A stretch of DNA of 26,697 nt from a virus: positions 1 to 26,697 of the IMG/VR virus record IMGVR_UViG_3300030060_004626; one strand, 5' to 3'. This document shows positions 4,422-26,697 of the stretch, piece after piece; position 1 is the stretch's first letter, and each line of letters starts with the position of its first letter. The notes beneath the pieces are model-generated. The model was not told the DNA's origin. It did not search any database and saw nothing but the letters and a program-made list of their open reading frames with translations. Made by a program: the position numbers and the translations under genes.

Positions 4422-6092
4422 ATGAAAGAAGCAAATATTAAAATTAATGCTCACACAGCAGATGCTGAAGCAAATTTAGCACGATTAGCAAACCAAGCTG
4501 AAGAAAGTAGTAAAAAAGTATTATCAGTAGGAGATGCAGCATTTGCTATAGCAGAAACAATGACAGGTGCTTTTGCAATAGCAACAGGTGCTATAGGTTT
4601 ATTTGCAGGAGAAAATGAAAAGTTTCAAAAAGTAGCATCTAAAGCACAATCAGTTATTGCTATAGCTATTGGAACTAGACAACTAGCAGAAGCTAAAGCA
4701 AATATTACAACATTAGCAGGAACAGCAATAGTAAAAGCTAATGCAGTTGCAACAAGATTAGCTAGTATTGCAATGGTAGCATTTAGTAGTGCTATAGGTA
4801 CATCTTCTAAAGCATTTAAGATAATGAAGATGGCAATAGTTTCTACAGGTTTAGGTGCTTTAGTTGTTGGACTTGGATTAGTTATTACAAAGTTAATGAG
4901 TATGTCTGATAAAACTGAAGAAGCAGCAGATAAACAAAAATTATTAACAGATGCTATTGATGCAACAAATAAAGTAGCAAATGATGCAGTAAGTTTAAAT
5001 GAAAAATTAAATCAAGCAACTAATCAAAGGGAAATAGATTTAATAAATGAAGAAAAAGCATATGAAAAAGCTAAAGAAAAACTAGCAATTTTTGTAGAGC
5101 AAAAAGAAATGGAATTAGCAAACAACATAGCTAATGGGAAATCATATACAGCAAACCAAGAAGCATATGATAAACATTTAGCTTCATTAGATGCACAGCA
5201 CGAACAATTAATTGCTAATAAAAAAGCATATGAAGAATACCAAAAAAGTCAAAATGAATCTTCTGAAGAAGAAAAAAAGAAAGAAGAAACAGTAAAAGCA
5301 TTAACTGATTTACAAAAAACATTAATAATTGCTGAAACTTCTATGTTACAAAGCAGATTAAATAATAGAATATCTGAATTTGAGTTAGAACAACAATTAA
5401 CAATGAATGAAATAGAATTAATGAAAGAAAAGCTATTAACAGAAGAACTAACTGAAGATGAATCATTTATTTTAAAAGAAGATATAGCTAGAAAAGAAAT
5501 AGAACTATTACAAGCAAAAGCAGATGAAGAAATACGTATAAATGATTTAATAGCAGAAAATACAAAAAAGAATGATGCAGAAAAAGAAGAAGCAGAACTG
5601 AAATTAGCAGAACAAGAACAAGCTAATTTTGATGCTAGGATGGCATTTGCAGGTGCAACAGGTGATATATTAGGTAATATGTCAGCATTAATGGAAGAAG
5701 GTTCAGCACAACAAAAAGCGATGGCACTAACTGAAATAGCTGTAAATACAGGAATAGGATTTATGAACGCTTTAAGAATTGCACAACAGGGTGGAATGGG
5801 AACAGGTGCAGCAGCACCATTTACTACTCCTATCTTTTATGCTTCACAAATAGCAGCAGTTTTAGGTGCAGCAGCACAAGCTAAACAAATTATTAGTTCA
5901 GGTAGTGAAGCAGGTGCAGGTGGTGGTGGTATTACATATACTGCTCCATTTATTCCTGAAAGTGCAGCACAAGGTGGTGGTACTCCTACTACAACTGATT
6001 CAAATGGTACTGTACAAGCATTTGTTGTTTCAAATGAGATTTCAAGTAGACAGGCTTTAGATAGTGAATTAGAATTACAATCAACATTATAA
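4422..6092 (+). CDS. Tail tape measure protein (short, 556 aa)
   Basis: The first 180 residues are Ala-rich helix, with hydrophobic stretches at about 40-65, 75-130 and 135-160 (including GLGALVVGLGLVITKLM). A long charged coiled-coil region follows at about 180-410, rich in Glu, Lys and Gln. The C-terminus is Ala/Gly-rich with a poly-Gly turn and a Thr/Ser tail. This architecture is characteristic of tape measure proteins, which span the tail lumen and set tail length. At about 0.15 nm per residue the protein would give a tail near 80 nm (inference from the family rule). It follows the large tail-tip gene by 13 bases. The coding sequence is rich in GCA and GAA, which creates open shadow frames. 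Confidence 0.88.
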   Translation: MKEANIKINAHTADAEANLARLANQAEESSKKVLSVGDAAFAIAETMTGAFAIATGAIGLFAGENEKFQKVASKAQSVIAIAIGTRQLAEAKANITTLAGTAIVKANAVATRLASIAMVAFSSAIGTSSKAFKIMKMAIVSTGLGALVVGLGLVITKLMSMSDKTEEAADKQKLLTDAIDATNKVANDAVSLNEKLNQATNQREIDLINEEKAYEKAKEKLAIFVEQKEMELANNIANGKSYTANQEAYDKHLASLDAQHEQLIANKKAYEEYQKSQNESSEEEKKKEETVKALTDLQKTLIIAETSMLQSRLNNRISEFELEQQLTMNEIELMKEKLLTEELTEDESFILKEDIARKEIELLQAKADEEIRINDLIAENTKKNDAEKEEAELKLAEQEQANFDARMAFAGATGDILGNMSALMEEGSAQQKAMALTEIAVNTGIGFMNALRIAQQGGMGTGAAAPFTTPIFYASQIAAVLGAAAQAKQIISSGSEAGAGGGGITYTAPFIPESAAQGGGTPTTTDSNGTVQAFVVSNEISSRQALDSELELQSTL

Positions 6093-10320: not shown

Positions 10321-12551
10321 AAATGAAAGATAAAAATAAAGTCAATTTTCATACTATAGATATAGCACCCTGTAATCAACCATCTATAACAGAACAAACA
10401 AATCAAGATTGGATAAGCTATGGAAACAATAACGACTATCCTGAATACTTAATTGACTTATATCAAAAAAGTTCAATTAATTCTGCGCTTATAAAAGGTA
10501 TATCAGCACAAATATATGGTGAAGGAATAGATGCTACTGATAGAAAAGAAAAACCTGAACAATGGCTAGCATATCAAATATTGATGGAAAAAAGTCAAAA
10601 AGATTTTTTAAAAAATGCTTGTTTTGATTTAAAACTTCACGGCTACTGCTTTTTAAATATTATATGGAATAGAAGTAGAACAAAAATAGCAGAAATAAAA
10701 CACATACCTGCACAAACAATTAGAACAGGGAAAGCAGATATGAGTGGTGAAATAAAAGAATATTATTATTCAGCAGATTGGAGTAATTATAGAAAACAAC
10801 AATATACACCACAAGGAATAAAAGCATATAATAAAAATGATAGAACTGAAGCATCTCAACTATTAATGGTTAAAGATTATTCACCTAGAATTTTCTATTA
10901 TTCATCACCTGACTATGTAGGTTCTACTACTTGGATTCAAATGGATGTACAAATTGCTGATTTTCATTTAAATAACATTTCAAATGGTTTATTTCCATCA
11001 ATGTCAATAGCATTTAATAATGGTATTCCAACTGATGAAGCTAGACAAGAAATAGAAAGAAAATTACAAGCTAAATTTAGTGGTAATCAAAATGCAGGTA
11101 GATTGATGATTACATTTAATGATGGAGCTGAAAATGCGCCTGTTATATCACCAATTAATTCAAATGGTGCAGATGGTTTATATCAATATTTATCTACTGA
11201 ATGTAAACACAAAATATTATCAGGGCATAGAATTACATCACCTTTATTATTAGGAATTAGAGATGCAGGTGGTGGATTTGGAAATAATGCTGATGAATTA
11301 AGAGATAGTTATGATTTATTACAAGGTATAGTTATTTCACCTTTTCAAGAAACTATACTAAATTCTTTTAAAGATTTATTAAGTTGTAATGATATTAATT
11401 TAGATATTTATTTTAAAACATTAAAACCTGCTTCATTTTTAGATGAAGAAATAATAGAAGTACAATCTAAAGAAGATGCAGAAAAAGAAGGTGTAAGTTT
11501 TGCTTCACAAATGGATGTAGATAGAAAACCTACAAAGGGAATGATTGATGAAGCTGAAAAAGGATTAGAATGGAGAAAAGAATATGGTAGAGGGGGAACA
11601 CAAGTAGCTACAGCAAGAGCAAGAGATATTGTTCAAAAAAAAAATTTAAGTCCTGAAACAATAAGAAGAATGAAATCATTTTTTGCTAGACACGAAGTAG
11701 ACAAAAAAGGCAAAGGATTTTATCCTGGTGGAGATGGTTTTCCATCAGCAGGTAGAATTGCTTGGGCATTATGGGGTGGTGATGCAGGACAAAGTTGGAG
11801 TGAAAAAAAAGTAAAAGAACTAGATAGAATTAGAGATGAAAATCTATCTATTCCTAAATTAGATGATGAAACAGGAGAAAAGTTATTAACACAATTATCT
11901 CAATTTCAAGAAGTTATAGATAATGATGAATGGTTTGAACTTGGTGAAATGGAAATGGATGGTCAAGAACACGAAGAACATTTTGAAAAATATGTAAATA
12001 GTAAAGATAATTCATATCATAAATTTTTTAATATACCACAAGAATCTCCAAATAGAAAGTCACAATCTGATGTAGGATTATTAAGAGTTTTATATAGATA
12101 TTCACAAAACATTTCATCTAATACTAGACCATTTTGCAGAGGTATGGTTTCAGCTAGTAAACAGGGTGCTTTATATACTGTTGATAATTTACAAAGAATG
12201 AGTCAACAATCATTAAATCCTGATTTTGCACATACAGGTAGTACTTATGATATTTGGCAATGGAAGGGTGGTGTATTTTGCCATCATCGTTGGATCCGTG
12301 TATTCTATTTAAGAAAAAGAGTTCCAAAGGGTCAAGAATTTTTAATAGAAGGAAAATTATATAAAGGTGGACAATATTTACCACCTACAACATTAGACAA
12401 TTTTAGAAAAACATATCAGGCAGAAATTAATAAACTAGGATTTAATTGGAAGGCAGTAAGAGGTAAAGAACCACAATATACTACAGCAGCACCGATTAAC
12501 ACTCCATTAAGGGGAGCATATCCTGGGGGAAGATTTGCACCTGGTAAATAA
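10317..12551 (+). CDS. Portal protein fused to an ARHEVD-type domain and a MuF-like C-terminal domain (744 aa)
   Basis: Residues 1 to about 385 look like a portal: WISYGNNNDYPEYLIDLYQ near 32-50, then SALIKGISAQIYGEG, and a helical TSPLLLGIRD...DELRDSYDLLQG region before the end. A portal forms the dodecameric DNA gate at one capsid vertex. Residues about 402-495 form a separate domain (KGLEWRKEYGRGG, SFFARHEVDKKGKGF, SAGRIAWALWGGD) that is widespread in phage head proteins. Residues about 590-660 resemble the C-terminal part of Mu gpF-like head morphogenesis proteins: RYSQNISSNTRPFCRGMVSA, a YTVDNLQRMS segment, then GGVFCHHRWIRV, which corresponds to the usual HPNCRC-like end. At 744 residues it is much longer than a plain portal (about 400-500). 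The domain assignments are by eye. Confidence 0.8.
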   Translation: MKMKDKNKVNFHTIDIAPCNQPSITEQTNQDWISYGNNNDYPEYLIDLYQKSSINSALIKGISAQIYGEGIDATDRKEKPEQWLAYQILMEKSQKDFLKNACFDLKLHGYCFLNIIWNRSRTKIAEIKHIPAQTIRTGKADMSGEIKEYYYSADWSNYRKQQYTPQGIKAYNKNDRTEASQLLMVKDYSPRIFYYSSPDYVGSTTWIQMDVQIADFHLNNISNGLFPSMSIAFNNGIPTDEARQEIERKLQAKFSGNQNAGRLMITFNDGAENAPVISPINSNGADGLYQYLSTECKHKILSGHRITSPLLLGIRDAGGGFGNNADELRDSYDLLQGIVISPFQETILNSFKDLLSCNDINLDIYFKTLKPASFLDEEIIEVQSKEDAEKEGVSFASQMDVDRKPTKGMIDEAEKGLEWRKEYGRGGTQVATARARDIVQKKNLSPETIRRMKSFFARHEVDKKGKGFYPGGDGFPSAGRIAWALWGGDAGQSWSEKKVKELDRIRDENLSIPKLDDETGEKLLTQLSQFQEVIDNDEWFELGEMEMDGQEHEEHFEKYVNSKDNSYHKFFNIPQESPNRKSQSDVGLLRVLYRYSQNISSNTRPFCRGMVSASKQGALYTVDNLQRMSQQSLNPDFAHTGSTYDIWQWKGGVFCHHRWIRVFYLRKRVPKGQEFLIEGKLYKGGQYLPPTTLDNFRKTYQAEINKLGFNWKAVRGKEPQYTTAAPINTPLRGAYPGGRFAPGK

Positions 12552-21323: not shown

Positions 21324-21854
21324 ATGGCTATAGTATTTAACACTGAAAAAAGAAAATTAAAAGATTTAAAAGAATATGAATTTAATCCTAGATTAATAAC
21401 TAAAGCACAATATATTCAATTAAAAAAATCTATTAAAAAATTTGGATTAGCAGAAATACCTTGTGTAAACAAAGATAATATTATAATAGCAGGGCATCAA
21501 CGAATAAAAATATTAAAAGAATTACATCCACCTGAATATGAAATAGATGTTAGAGTACCTTCTAGATTATTGACTGAAGAAGAATTTCAAGAATATAATA
21601 TTAGAAGTAATAAAAATACAGGAGAATTTGATACAGATATTTTAGCAAATGAATTTGATTTAGATAATTTAATAGATTATGGTTTTAAGCATATTGAATT
21701 AGGAATTAACATAGATAAAATACCTGATGATTTATCTGATAAATTAGAAATACAATTCAAAATAGAAGTAGAAGTAGAATCAGAAAGAGAACAAGAGCAA
21801 TTATATAATGAATTAACTAAAAAAGGATATAAATGCCGAATTTTAACATTATAA
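21324..21854 (+). CDS. ParB-like nuclease-domain protein (176 aa)
   Basis: The N-terminal 100 residues are a ParB/Srx-like domain: LKDLKEYEFNPRLI with NPR at 21-23, a SIKKFGLAEIPCV helix-strand, IIAGHQRIKILKEL with the GHQR motif (57-60), and YNIRSNKNTGEFD (91-103). This subtype is often found beside DNA-modifying enzymes in phages and can bind or hydrolyse nucleotides. The C-terminus is acidic and helical. It overlaps the ABC-GNAT gene by 22 bases, so both are probably made together. I infer a joint role in DNA modification or its control. Confidence 0.8.
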   Translation: MAIVFNTEKRKLKDLKEYEFNPRLITKAQYIQLKKSIKKFGLAEIPCVNKDNIIIAGHQRIKILKELHPPEYEIDVRVPSRLLTEEEFQEYNIRSNKNTGEFDTDILANEFDLDNLIDYGFKHIELGINIDKIPDDLSDKLEIQFKIEVEVESEREQEQLYNELTKKGYKCRILTL

Positions 21855-22924
21855 AAGAAGTAAAACCTAAAAAAAGTTTTAGAGTAAGTTCGGTAATAGG
21901 TAAATTTGATTTACAATCAGAACATATAAAAGAACAATTTACAGGAAGTATTGATTTGGATAATGATTGGCAAATTGGAATTATAGTAGGAAGTAGTGGT
22001 AGTGGTAAAACAACTATAGCAAAAGAATTATTTCCAAAAAGTTATATTACAGATTTTAAATATAAGGCAGAAACTATATTAGATGATATGCCTGAAGATA
22101 AATCAGTAGATGAAATTACCAAAACTTTTAATAGTGTAGGTTTTTCATCCCCACCAAGTTGGTTAAAACCATATTCAGTTTTATCTAATGGACAAAAAAT
22201 GAGGGTTGATTTAGCAAATGGTTTATTGCAAAACAAAGATTTAATGGTATTTGATGAATTTACAAGTGTAGTAGATAGAAATGTAGCAAAGATAGGTAGT
22301 TATGCAGTGCAAAAAGCTATCAGAAAATCAGATAAAAAATTTATAGCAGTTACTTGCCATAATGATGTGGTAGATTGGCTAATGCCTGACTGGATATTTA
22401 ATACTGATAGTATGACCTTTCAAAAACTTGAAGGGCAAAAAAAAAATAAACCAAAAATCAAATTGCAAATATTCAATACAAGAGATAAGTCAATATGGAA
22501 AATGTTTGCTAAACATCACTATTTAAATCATTCACATAATAATGCTGCCACAGTATATGTAGCTTATGTGAATAATAATTTAGCAGGTTTTTATTCTGTT
22601 TTGCCTTTTCCTCACCCAGTAATTAAAAATGTTAGAAAAGGCCATAGATTAGTTGTTTTACCTGATTATCAAGGCATAGGTGTTGGGTTAAGGATTAGAA
22701 CGGAAATAGCAAAGCATTATGTTTTAAATGAAAAGAAAAGATTTATAGCTACAACTTCTCATCCTGCAATTATTTATGGATTGAAAAATAATCCAAATTG
22801 GTTATTAACCAAAAAAGGAAGGCAGGGAAGAGGAGGAAAGACAGGAAAAATACAAAATATAAATGTTAAAAATAGTTCTTCATCTAATAGAATTACAACA
22901 TCTTGGGAATATATCATAAAATGA
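21833..22924 (+). CDS. ABC-type ATPase fused to a GNAT acyltransferase (363 aa)
   Basis: The N-terminal half is an ABC ATPase domain without membrane segments: Walker A GSSGSGKT (53-60), signature LSNGQ (117-121), Walker B LMVFDE (137-142), and an H-loop TCHND (174-178). The C-terminal half (about 210-315) is a GNAT domain with VYVAYVNNNLAGFYSVLPFP, then HRLVVLPDYQGIGVGLRIRT, where QGIGVG (280-285) is the acyl-CoA loop. A basic Gly-rich tail follows (RQGRGGKTGK). ATPase and transferase in one chain, next to ParB, suggests an ATP-dependent, DNA-associated acyl transfer. Phage Mu Mom is a GNAT-fold DNA modifier, so a base-modification role is conceivable (inference). N-acetylation of a protein is the alternative. 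Confidence 0.85.
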   Translation: MPNFNIIKEVKPKKSFRVSSVIGKFDLQSEHIKEQFTGSIDLDNDWQIGIIVGSSGSGKTTIAKELFPKSYITDFKYKAETILDDMPEDKSVDEITKTFNSVGFSSPPSWLKPYSVLSNGQKMRVDLANGLLQNKDLMVFDEFTSVVDRNVAKIGSYAVQKAIRKSDKKFIAVTCHNDVVDWLMPDWIFNTDSMTFQKLEGQKKNKPKIKLQIFNTRDKSIWKMFAKHHYLNHSHNNAATVYVAYVNNNLAGFYSVLPFPHPVIKNVRKGHRLVVLPDYQGIGVGLRIRTEIAKHYVLNEKKRFIATTSHPAIIYGLKNNPNWLLTKKGRQGRGGKTGKIQNINVKNSSSSNRITTSWEYIIK

Positions 22925-23045: not shown

Positions 23046-23364
23046 AGAAATATTATTAGAAGCATTAGAAAAAAGTTTAGGCATAGTTTATACAGCTTGT
23101 GAAAGAAGTAATGTATCTAGAGCTACATTTTACAGATGGTTAGAAACTGATAAAGATTTTGCACAAAAAGTAGATGATATCCAAAACTTTCAATTAGATT
23201 TTGTTGAATCTAAACTACTTAAAAACATAGGAGATGGTAAAGAAACATCAATTATATTTTATTTAAAAACTAGAGGTAGAAATAGAGGTTATGGTGAAAA
23301 TTTAGATGTAACTTCTAAAGGTGATAAGTTCAACGAAATAAAAGTTCATATAGTTGAAAAATAA
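23026..23364 (+). CDS. terS: Terminase small subunit (112 aa)
   Basis: The N-terminal helix-turn-helix (GIVYTACERSNVSRATFYRW then LETDKDFAQKVDD) and the following oligomerisation helices (FVESKLLKNIGDGKETSIIF) match small terminase subunits of the type common in Bacteroidota phages, which also carry the YLKTRGRNRGYGE segment. The protein recognises the packaging site and regulates the large subunit. The next gene starts by TAATG overlap and is the large terminase, which makes the call secure. Confidence 0.87.
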   Translation: MKTEKDKEILLEALEKSLGIVYTACERSNVSRATFYRWLETDKDFAQKVDDIQNFQLDFVESKLLKNIGDGKETSIIFYLKTRGRNRGYGENLDVTSKGDKFNEIKVHIVEK

Positions 23365-24518
23365 TGGATTTATATACTACAGGTATATTTAAAAAGAATT
23401 GGAATGCAAATACAAGAATAGTATGCAATCAGGGTGGAACAAGAAGTAGCAAAACATATTCATTATTACAACTAATAGTTTTAAGGTGTTTAAAAGAAAC
23501 TGATAAAATTTGGAGTATATGTCGTAAAACCTATCCTGCATTGAAAGCTACAGCAATGCGAGATTTAATAGAGATTCTTGAAAAGATGGAATTATATAAT
23601 ATTAAATTTCATAATAAATCAGATAGTACATACAAGCTAAATGGAAACCTAATAGAATTTATAGCTGTAGATGAACCACAAAAAATAAGAGGTAGAAAAA
23701 GAAACTTTGCTTTTTTAAATGAAGCAAATGAATTTACATTTGAAGATTTTCAGCAATTAGCATTAAGAACAACTGAACAAATATATTTAGATTTTAATCC
23801 TTCTGATGAATTTCATTGGATATATGATAAAGTAATATCTAGAGATGATTGTACATTTATCAAATCTACTTATTTAGATAATCCATTTTTAGAAGAAGAA
23901 ACTATAAAAGAAATTGAAAGATTAAAAATAGATGACAATTATTGGAGAATATATGGATTAGGAGAAAAAGGTGTATCTATGTCAACTATATTCAGAAATA
24001 CAATTTTATGTGATAAGATACCTGAAAGAGCAAAATTTATAGCTTATGGATTAGATTGGGGTTTTAGTTCAGACCCTACAGCATTAGTAGAATTATATGC
24101 TACTGATACTGATTTATATATGAATGAAATATTATTTGAAAGAGGTTTAACAAATCAAGATATAGGTGATAGAATGAAAGAATTACAAATACAAAGAAAT
24201 GATGAAATAATTGCCGACTCCTCAGAACCCAAGAGTATTGAAGAGGTCTACCGAATGAATTTTAATATTAAACCTTCTTTAAAAGGAAAAGATTCAATAA
24301 GATTAGGAATTGATATTATGAGACGTTACAAAATTAATATTACAAAAAATTCAATTAATATGATTAAAGAGTTTAGAAACTACAAGTGGAAACAAGATAA
24401 AAATGGTAATACTTTACCTGTTCCTGTTGATGCTTATAATCATACAATAGATGCAATTAGATATATATGTTTAAATAAATTAATGAAAAATAATCAGGGT
24501 AAATATTACGTTATGTAA
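23364..24518 (+). CDS. terL: Terminase large subunit (384 aa)
   Basis: The ATPase half shows a Walker A variant GGTRSSKT (24-31), CRKTYPALKATAMRD (53-67), Walker B-like FAFLNEAN (115-122, Asn at the usual Asp-Glu pair's first position as in many PBSX-type terminases) and a LDFNPSDEFHWIY coupling segment. The nuclease half has the RNase-H-like acidic residues D231 (YGLDWGFSSDP), D285 (IIADSSEPKS) and D363 (HTIDAIRY). This motor pumps DNA into the prohead and cuts the concatemer. At 384 residues it is compact but complete. A promoter-like motif follows 13 bases after the stop. Confidence 0.95.
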   Translation: MDLYTTGIFKKNWNANTRIVCNQGGTRSSKTYSLLQLIVLRCLKETDKIWSICRKTYPALKATAMRDLIEILEKMELYNIKFHNKSDSTYKLNGNLIEFIAVDEPQKIRGRKRNFAFLNEANEFTFEDFQQLALRTTEQIYLDFNPSDEFHWIYDKVISRDDCTFIKSTYLDNPFLEEETIKEIERLKIDDNYWRIYGLGEKGVSMSTIFRNTILCDKIPERAKFIAYGLDWGFSSDPTALVELYATDTDLYMNEILFERGLTNQDIGDRMKELQIQRNDEIIADSSEPKSIEEVYRMNFNIKPSLKGKDSIRLGIDIMRRYKINITKNSINMIKEFRNYKWKQDKNGNTLPVPVDAYNHTIDAIRYICLNKLMKNNQGKYYVM

Positions 24519-24553: not shown

Positions 24554-25168
24554 ATGAAAGTTAATATTCCAGAAAAGTGGTCAGAAATAACATTAAGACA
24601 GTTTCAAAAATATAATGTTGAAGTCAGAAAAGATATTAATGAAACTACTAAACTGATTCAAACAATTTCAACTTTGTGCAATATTTCATTTGAAGATACT
24701 TGTAAAATGTCTATTAAAGATATTACTAAATTATCAGGATATATTTCAGAACTACTACAATTAAAACCTGAAACACATATAATGATATTTGAATATAAAG
24801 GTGTAAAATATGGATTTATTCCAAAATTAGATGATATAAGTATAGGAGAATATGCAGATTTAGAATATTATTTAAGTGACACTGAAAATATGTGGAATAA
24901 TATGCATTGGATTATGAGCATTTTATATAGAGAAATAGAAGAAGAAAAAGATGGGAAATATAGAATAGCTGAATATACACCCTGTGATAAAAGAGCAAAC
25001 CTATTTAAAGATATAGGAATGAATGTGGTTTATTCAGCATCTAATTTTTTTTTGACTTTAGGGGGGGAATTGTTAGAGATTATCGGAAACTCTACCCAAA
25101 ACAAGAAGGAAATACTGAACCAACTGAAGGAGATGAATGGGGGTGGTTCAAAATTATCTACCATTTAG
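24554..25168 (+). CDS. Tail assembly chaperone, zero-frame product (204 aa)
   Basis: The protein starts IPEKWSEITLRQFQKYNVEV and continues with TTKLIQTISTLCNISFEDTC, KMSIKDITKLSGYISELLQL. I recognise this as the N-terminal pattern of tail assembly chaperones (gpG-like) in Bacteroidota siphophages. These bind the tape measure during tail assembly and are absent from the mature virion. Typical members are made in two forms through a frameshift near the 3' end. Here a run of seven G lies at 25061-25067 (codons 170-172), and the -1 frame stays open after it for 75 codons. The zero-frame tail (ELLEIIGNSTQNKKEILNQL and on) is the short form. The gene directly follows the terminase, an unusual place. 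Confidence 0.78.
   Translation: MKVNIPEKWSEITLRQFQKYNVEVRKDINETTKLIQTISTLCNISFEDTCKMSIKDITKLSGYISELLQLKPETHIMIFEYKGVKYGFIPKLDDISIGEYADLEYYLSDTENMWNNMHWIMSILYREIEEEKDGKYRIAEYTPCDKRANLFKDIGMNVVYSASNFFLTLGGELLEIIGNSTQNKKEILNQLKEMNGGGSKLSTI
25061..25067 (+). promoter_or_regulatory. Programmed -1 frameshift site (GGGGGGGA)
   Basis: The zero frame reads TTA GGG GGG GAA. Slippage by one base on the G run moves translation to the -1 frame, which is open from 25045 to the TAA at 25291-25293. A weak hairpin (TAGAG at 25074-25078 with CTCTA at 25090-25094, loop 11) lies seven bases downstream and could stimulate slippage. An eighth G lost in assembly would look the same. Confidence 0.65.
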
Positions 25169-25293
25169 CAGATGGTAATATTGCAAGATTTGATGAAATA
25201 GAAAAACTTCCTTTACTATTAGCATTAAATACATTAAGCTATGAAAAGGATAAAAGTGCAATAGAAAAAAGAGAAATAAATAGAATAAAATAA
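25066..25293 (+). CDS. Tail assembly chaperone, -1 frame extension (gpT-like, 75 aa)
   Basis: This frame has no start codon of its own near its beginning and reads through GIVRDYRKLYPKQ, EWGWFKIIYHLADGN, IARFDEIEKLPLLLALNTLS and YEKDKSAIEKRE. The pattern (W..IY.LA.G....FDE...LPL...LN.LSYE.DK) is that of the C-terminal T-domain of tail assembly chaperones, which contacts the tape measure. Joined by -1 slippage at 25061-25067 the product would be 246 residues (171 plus 75). The stop lies four bases before the next ATG, so the gene spacing fits the extended form rather than the short one. Confidence 0.72.
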   Translation, partial: GIVRDYRKLYPKQEGNTEPTEGDEWGWFKIIYHLADGNIARFDEIEKLPLLLALNTLSYEKDKSAIEKREINRIK

Positions 25294-25297
25294 TATT

Positions 25298-25429
25298 ATG
25301 TTTAGTATAAAAAAATATGGTAATCAAATACCTGAACAAATAGAAAAGATGTTTAATTGGTTTATGTTAAACAATCCTTCTATATATAGAAAAATACAAA
25401 AAGTATGTCAAAAACATAAACAATATTAA
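25298..25429 (+). CDS. Small unknown protein (43 aa)
   Basis: MFSIKKYGNQIPEQIEKMFN continues WFMLNNPSIYRKIQKVC to a basic end. The ATG sits four bases after the -1 extension stop, and the TAA two bases before the next ATG, so the frame fills the gap exactly, as a real gene would. It is a single amphipathic helix with no recognised family. Possibly a small tail assembly factor. Confidence 0.55.
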   Translation: MFSIKKYGNQIPEQIEKMFNWFMLNNPSIYRKIQKVCQKHKQY

Positions 25430-26565: not shown

Positions 26566-26697
26566 ATGAGTTATACAATAGAACAAGAACCAGTTTTAGT
26601 TATAGGAACAGGACAACCTATTATATTTACAGCAAAAGAAAGTGCATTATCAGGAAGTCCAAAATTTAAGTATATATGTGATATATATATAAATGGA
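26566..26697 (+). CDS. Tail structural protein, N-terminal 44 residues (continues at the left end)
   Basis: This is the start of the 454-residue tail protein described at the left end. The ATG follows an A-rich leader (AATAAAATT) after the gp10-like gene and reads MSYTIEQEPVLVIGTGQPII. The frame is unbroken through the 92-bp repeat to 1325. Only the first 40 bases (26566-26605) are unique to this end. Confidence 0.9.
   Translation, partial: MSYTIEQEPVLVIGTGQPIIFTAKESALSGSPKFKYICDIYING
26606..26697. repeat. Right copy of 92-bp terminal direct repeat
   Basis: Identical to bases 1-92. It supports circular closure of the contig with a unit length of 26,605 bp. Confidence 0.97.

What the first reader, a model, noticed from the sequence alone, without database searches (positions are those of the whole stretch)
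24554..25293. Programmed -1 frameshift in a tail assembly chaperone gene placed directly after the terminase
The zero frame carries an N-terminal tail-chaperone pattern and meets GGGGGGGA at 25061-25067. The -1 frame is open from 25045 to 25293 and its 75 codons carry the usual C-terminal chaperone pattern (GWFKIIYHLADGN, LPLLLALNTLSYE). The extension has no start of its own, and its stop lies four bases from the next ATG. Frameshifted G/GT chaperones are well known, but a pure G-run site of this kind in a Bacteroidota phage, with the gene next to terL instead of between tube and tape measure, deserves attention. A sequencing error (7 instead of 8 G) is the main alternative.
Basis: partly seen in the sequence, partly recalled or inferred. 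Interest (0 to 1): 0.75.

Follow-up and report, generated by a model that had tools for sequence, protein, structure and literature searches.

The report
Polymerase-slip site in phage tail chaperone
A gene next to the terminase of a Bacteroidota phage makes a short and a frame-shifted long protein, and comparison of 307 relatives shows that the shift happens at a strictly conserved run of nine or ten T, most likely because RNA polymerase stutters there, and not at the G run that was first suspected.

Summary
The two-frame gene is real, and a sequencing error is ruled out.

All 307 relatives whose site lies inside the contig have a pure run of nine T (273) or ten T (34) there, never fewer or more. 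In the window it is T9 at 25045-25053, seven bases before the G run. In 304 of them the -1 frame carries the same C-terminal domain; the other three are cut off. The G7 run (25061-25067) is absent from the closest relative found.

The total run length is held while its position in the reading frame moves (phases 0, 1 and 2): extra T on the left trades against T on the right (54 clusters at 50% identity, Fisher p = 1e-8). Both Phe codons are always TTT, although 27% of Phe codons elsewhere in these genes are TTC. No downstream RNA structure or Shine-Dalgarno-like stimulator was found. This fits programmed RNA-polymerase slippage (T9 to U10) better than ribosomal slippage; no RNA data were available to prove it.

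The protein looks like a tail assembly chaperone (G/GT layout, weak profile and fold matches) but does not reach the known family's cut-off. Slippage at T9 and G/GT pairs are both known; I found no report of the combination.

The parts
24554..25168 (+). zero-frame ORF: short form, 204 aa; residues 1-166 are the conserved N-terminal domain
   Evidence: homologs; confident model, pLDDT 94.6
25045..25053 (+). T9 slip site (AAT TTT TTT TTG in zero frame)
   Evidence: T9 or T10 in 307 of 307 relatives; length kept across registers
25045..25293 (+). -1-frame extension (82 codons and stop), C-terminal domain of the long 246-aa form
25061..25067 (+).
   Evidence: absent in L024; no G run of six or more near the site in the other loci
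23364..24518 (+). terminase large subunit, gene directly upstream
   Evidence: Terminase_3, Terminase_3C and PHROG terminase matches

Best explanation
The gene makes two proteins. Most mRNAs copy the T9 run faithfully and are read in the zero frame to the short 204-residue form. In a fraction of transcripts RNA polymerase slips inside T9, where the 9-10 bp RNA:DNA hybrid can re-pair one base out, and adds one U. Normal translation of this U10 mRNA enters the -1 frame and makes a 246-residue fusion with a conserved C-terminal domain. The two forms probably act as a G/GT-like tail assembly chaperone pair. Shown: both frames are conserved, and T9/T10 is under selection as a run of fixed total length. 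Inferred: that the slip is transcriptional, the ratio of short to long form, and the chaperone role.
For: 307 of 307 relatives have T9 (273) or T10 (34), none 7, 8 or 11, in all three register phases, and 304 have the C-terminal domain in the -1 frame. Left and right T counts compensate so that the total stays 9-10: Fisher p = 1e-8 for 54 clusters, 2e-6 for 30 clusters; the register changes at least 10 times on the tree. Both Phe codons TTT in 54 of 54 clusters against 252 TTT: 91 TTC elsewhere in the genes. No stimulatory structure or SD-like element. Literature: bacterial polymerase slips efficiently at nine A or T and has a 9-10 bp hybrid (PMC5009743); single-base insertions occur in A/T runs and not in G/C runs (PMC5574713). 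A homolog, L115, has both parts in one frame without a T run.
Against: No RNA or protein data. T9 always contains an in-frame U UUU UUU, so ribosomal slippage is possible at the same place. The two T outside the heptamer can partly be explained by hydrophobic residues (T at the middle codon position) in one frame or the other. The phylogenetically controlled sign test had only three well-supported pairs and no power. The chaperone role rests on layout and weak matches.
Confidence: 0.7

Rival explanations
1. Programmed -1 ribosomal frameshifting on U UUU UUU inside the same T run: two tRNA-Phe slip back one base, as in classical G/GT genes.
For: Every T9/T10 run contains an in-frame U UUU UUU heptamer; G/GT genes of other phages use ribosomal -1 shifts, often without stimulators (PMC5009743).
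Against: Seven T or U UUU UUC would be enough, yet none of 307 loci has a run below nine or a C in the Phe codons. The total length and not the frame-anchored heptamer is held. No other heptamer is used in any relative. No stimulators.
Confidence: 0.24
2. One reading: ribosomal shift at the G7 run 25061-25067.
For: G7 lies in the overlap of the two open frames.
Against: Absent in the closest relative found and not a conserved feature; conserved -1-frame residues precede it.
Confidence: 0.02
3. Sequencing or assembly error, pseudogene, or a phase-variable DNA tract with the fusion in frame in part of the population.
For: Homopolymers are error-prone and can be phase-variable.
Against: The C-terminal domain is in the -1 frame in 304 of 304 relatives that reach it, never in frame after a T run; cultured phages and an isolate's genome agree; run length does not vary beyond 9-10.
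Confidence: 0.02
4. The -1 frame is translated as a separate small protein by internal or coupled initiation.
For: The P12024S annotators called a separate ORF from an internal ATG; 29 of 52 clusters have some ATG, GTG or TTG before the core motif.
Against: 23 of 52 clusters, the window among them, have none. Conserved -1-frame residues lie directly after the T run. L115 encodes the two parts as one open frame without a T run.
Confidence: 0.02

Closest known systems
Lambda G/GT tail assembly chaperones and their counterparts in many long-tailed phages (PMC5009743)
   Same: Short product plus a low-abundance long form with a C-terminal domain from the -1 frame; located among morphogenesis genes
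   Different: T9/T10 run instead of a heptamer; gene lies by terL and not between tube and tape measure; no significant match to the Pfam chaperone model
Programmed transcriptional slippage at nine-base A/T runs (Thermus thermophilus dnaX; Shigella spa13/mxiE type III secretion genes; PMC5009743, PMC3711429)
   Same: Run at the length of the RNA:DNA hybrid; a second product from mRNAs with inserted bases
   Different: Here in a phage tail-chaperone-like gene, conserved over hundreds of divergent phages; slippage itself not yet measured
phrog_32199 (unknown function)
   Same: 37 of 38 N-terminal family members match
   Different: The PHROG has no function and does not describe the frameshifted extension
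In-frame homologs: L115 and, more remotely, Flavobacterium phages 2A and FPSV-D15
   Same: L115 matches both the N- and C-terminal profiles; 2A only the N-terminal one, weakly
   Different: One open frame, no T9 run, so only the long form

Membership tests
G/GT-type tail assembly chaperone | Two products sharing an N-terminus, the longer through a frame change | tested here: met
   Gene layout conserved in 304 of 307 relatives, the rest cut; products themselves not observed
G/GT-type tail assembly chaperone | Sequence match to a known chaperone family at its curated cut-off | tested here: not met
   Pfam Phage_TAC_7 13.6 bits against a cut-off of 25; five of 38 members match phrog_166 tail protein, best E 5e-4
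G/GT-type tail assembly chaperone | Fold of a known chaperone | tested here: inconclusive
   No PDB match; one weak chaperone in BFVD, E 0.027, TM 0.42-0.47
G/GT-type tail assembly chaperone | Gene between major tail protein and tape measure | tested here: not met
   Lies directly after terL; a tape-measure-like gene is at 4422-6092, several genes on after the circular junction
G/GT-type tail assembly chaperone | Binds tape measure and tail tube protein | not testable with these tools
   Needs pull-down
Programmed transcriptional realignment site | Homopolymer of at least 8-9 A or T conserved as a run | tested here: met
   T9/T10 in 307 of 307
Programmed transcriptional realignment site | Run length held irrespective of reading-frame register | tested here: met
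   Phases 0, 1, 2; compensation p = 1e-8 for 54 clusters
Programmed transcriptional realignment site | mRNAs with inserted U | not testable with these tools
   Needs RNA sequencing
Ribosomal -1 frameshift site | In-frame X XXY YYZ heptamer | tested here: met
   U UUU UUU lies in every T9/T10 run, in any register
Ribosomal -1 frameshift site | Stimulators: downstream structure or upstream SD-like sequence | tested here: not met
   Mean z 0.00 downstream; SD-like in 2 of 54 clusters. Not essential for low-level sites

The most novel reading that the evidence does not exclude
A large family of Bacteroidota tailed phages sets the ratio of its two tail chaperone forms by programmed RNA-polymerase slippage at T9/T10, so that a ratio which other phages fix at the ribosome is fixed here during transcription.
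Probability: 0.6. Interest if true: 0.75.

Novelty: new variant of a known kind. Interest (0 to 1): 0.64.

Why it matters
Frameshifted tail chaperones are a textbook case of ribosomal recoding. A family that keeps the two-product layout but uses polymerase slippage would suggest that the product ratio, not the way of making it, is under selection. It also corrects the annotation of a gene that is listed as two hypothetical proteins even in cultured phages, and gives a 307-member natural record of what such a site needs (nine or ten T, never eight or eleven).

Tried and rejected
G7 as slip site: rejected by conservation. Sequencing error, pseudogene and phase variation: rejected because the frame relation is the same in every relative. 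Stimulatory RNA structure: none found. Prophage survey: among 395 genomes of the Flagellimonas genome's phylum only three further hits, one convincing T9 case (L114), one in-frame homolog (L115) and one broken weak hit (L116); the family is mainly seen in viral contigs. Fold search against PDB gave nothing. The C-terminal model is weak (pLDDT 71.7) and was not searched. tblastn in cultured phages finds only P12024S and P12024L. Eight literature searches found no report of transcriptional slippage in a tail chaperone; a passing mention for an Acinetobacter prophage tape measure exists (PMC6095929). Only open-access papers were searchable, and the Sharma et al. 2011 pilot study was not held.

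Full report
Observation. The zero-frame ORF 24554-25168 (204 aa), the G7 run at 25061-25067 and the open -1 frame 25045-25293 are all present as described. In zero frame it reads AAT TTT TTT TTG, so it also holds an in-frame T TTT TTT heptamer.

Relatives. The first leads were two cultured Nonlabens phages, P12024S and P12024L, in which the gene after terL has the same N-terminal domain and a homologous -1-frame extension. The closest relative found, L024 (TerL 77% identical), has T9 and the same extension but GGTCAGG in place of the G run.

The shift site. Of the loci whose site lies inside the contig, 307 of 307 (the window's own copy L001 among them) have a pure T run of nine (273) or ten (34), and none has fewer or more. 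In 304 the -1 frame after the run matches the C-terminal profile; the other three are cut off. The -1-frame residues FFxFR, directly after the T run and before the G run, are conserved, so the frame has already changed before the G run. The G run is therefore judged incidental.

Run length against heptamer. A ribosomal heptamer needs seven T at a fixed place in the frame. The run is nine or ten T long in all three registers (phase 0, 1, 2: 6, 211, 90 loci). Anchored on the two Phe codons, the T counts on the left and on the right always add to three or four. With clusters as units the compensation has p = 1e-8 (54 clusters at 50% identity) and 2e-6 (30 clusters at 40%). On a tree of 105 representatives the register changes at least ten times and the length is kept; a sign test limited to well-supported branches has only three pairs and no power. 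Both Phe codons are TTT in 54 of 54 clusters, against 252 TTT and 91 TTC elsewhere in the same genes, and other T runs of nine or more are rare (eight in 307 kb of the same loci). A caution: the T outside the heptamer often fall on middle codon positions of hydrophobic residues in one of the frames, so amino-acid constraint may explain part of the pattern.

No stimulators. Folding of the 75 bases after the run gives a mean z-score of 0.00 over 54 clusters, and SD-like sequence lies upstream in two. This fits transcriptional slippage but does not exclude low-level ribosomal slippage, which can do without stimulators (PMC5009743).

Why RNA polymerase. A review states that slippage by bacterial RNA polymerase is efficient in vivo at nine A or T and that the RNA:DNA hybrid is 9-10 bp (PMC5009743). 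A genome-wide study finds single-base insertions in A or T runs and none in G or C runs (PMC5574713). One added U gives exactly the -1 frame. A run of nine to ten, irrespective of frame, is what this mechanism asks for.

What the protein is. 37 of 38 N-terminal family members match phrog_32199, of unknown function, and five match a tail protein family. Pfam's Phage_TAC_7 is below its cut-off. The N-terminal model is confident (pLDDT 94.6) but has no PDB match; the viral library gives uncharacterised phage proteins and one weak chaperone. The window has a 92-base terminal repeat, so it is probably a complete circular genome; after closure the gene lies upstream of tail genes and of a tape-measure-like gene at 4422-6092, whose identity rests on its sequence character and not on a profile match. 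The G/GT layout is the main reason to call the gene chaperone-like. L115 has the two parts in a single frame without T9, which supports the fusion as a functional product.

Hosts. T9 copies of the gene also lie in the genome of the isolate Flagellimonas onchidii and in MAGs named Winogradskyella and Psychroflexus, and the cultured phages infect Nonlabens, so the family infects Bacteroidota. One copy lies in a MAG named as an epsilonproteobacterium, which may be misbinned. The window's own host was not determined.

Verdict. The gene and its -1 extension are real and conserved; the shift is at T9; transcriptional slippage is the best-supported mechanism (0.7) over ribosomal slippage (0.24). The parts are known separately, and the combination seems new within the open-access literature that could be searched.

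Noticed in passing
1-92 and 26606-26697: 92-base direct terminal repeat: the record is probably a complete circular genome of about 26.6 kb; a 458-aa tail-like ORF crosses the junction.
   Followed up: partly
21833-22924: Single ORF joining an ABC-type ATPase and a GNAT acetyltransferase (phrog_11143); its ATPase part resembles DNA in unrelated phages, and Leptospira phages LE3/LE4 and P12024S carry a similar fusion.
   Followed up: no
11635-11644 and 22437-22446: A10 runs inside the portal ORF and inside the ATPase-GNAT ORF: further places where polymerase slippage could occur, conservation not examined.
   Followed up: no
25298-25429: Small ORF (about 43 aa) directly after the extension's stop; it may be a gene, conservation not tested.
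   Followed up: no
L117 10000-10927 (KC959568, Flavobacterium phage 6H): The distant homolog in phage 6H is broken into several frames, while the same gene in phages 2A and FPSV-D15 is one 293-aa ORF; 6H has two extra bases here, perhaps sequencing errors.
   Followed up: partly
L115 1498-2235 (minus strand): Homolog with both domains in one frame and no T run, in a genome of the same phylum search: the slip site can be absent.
   Followed up: partly
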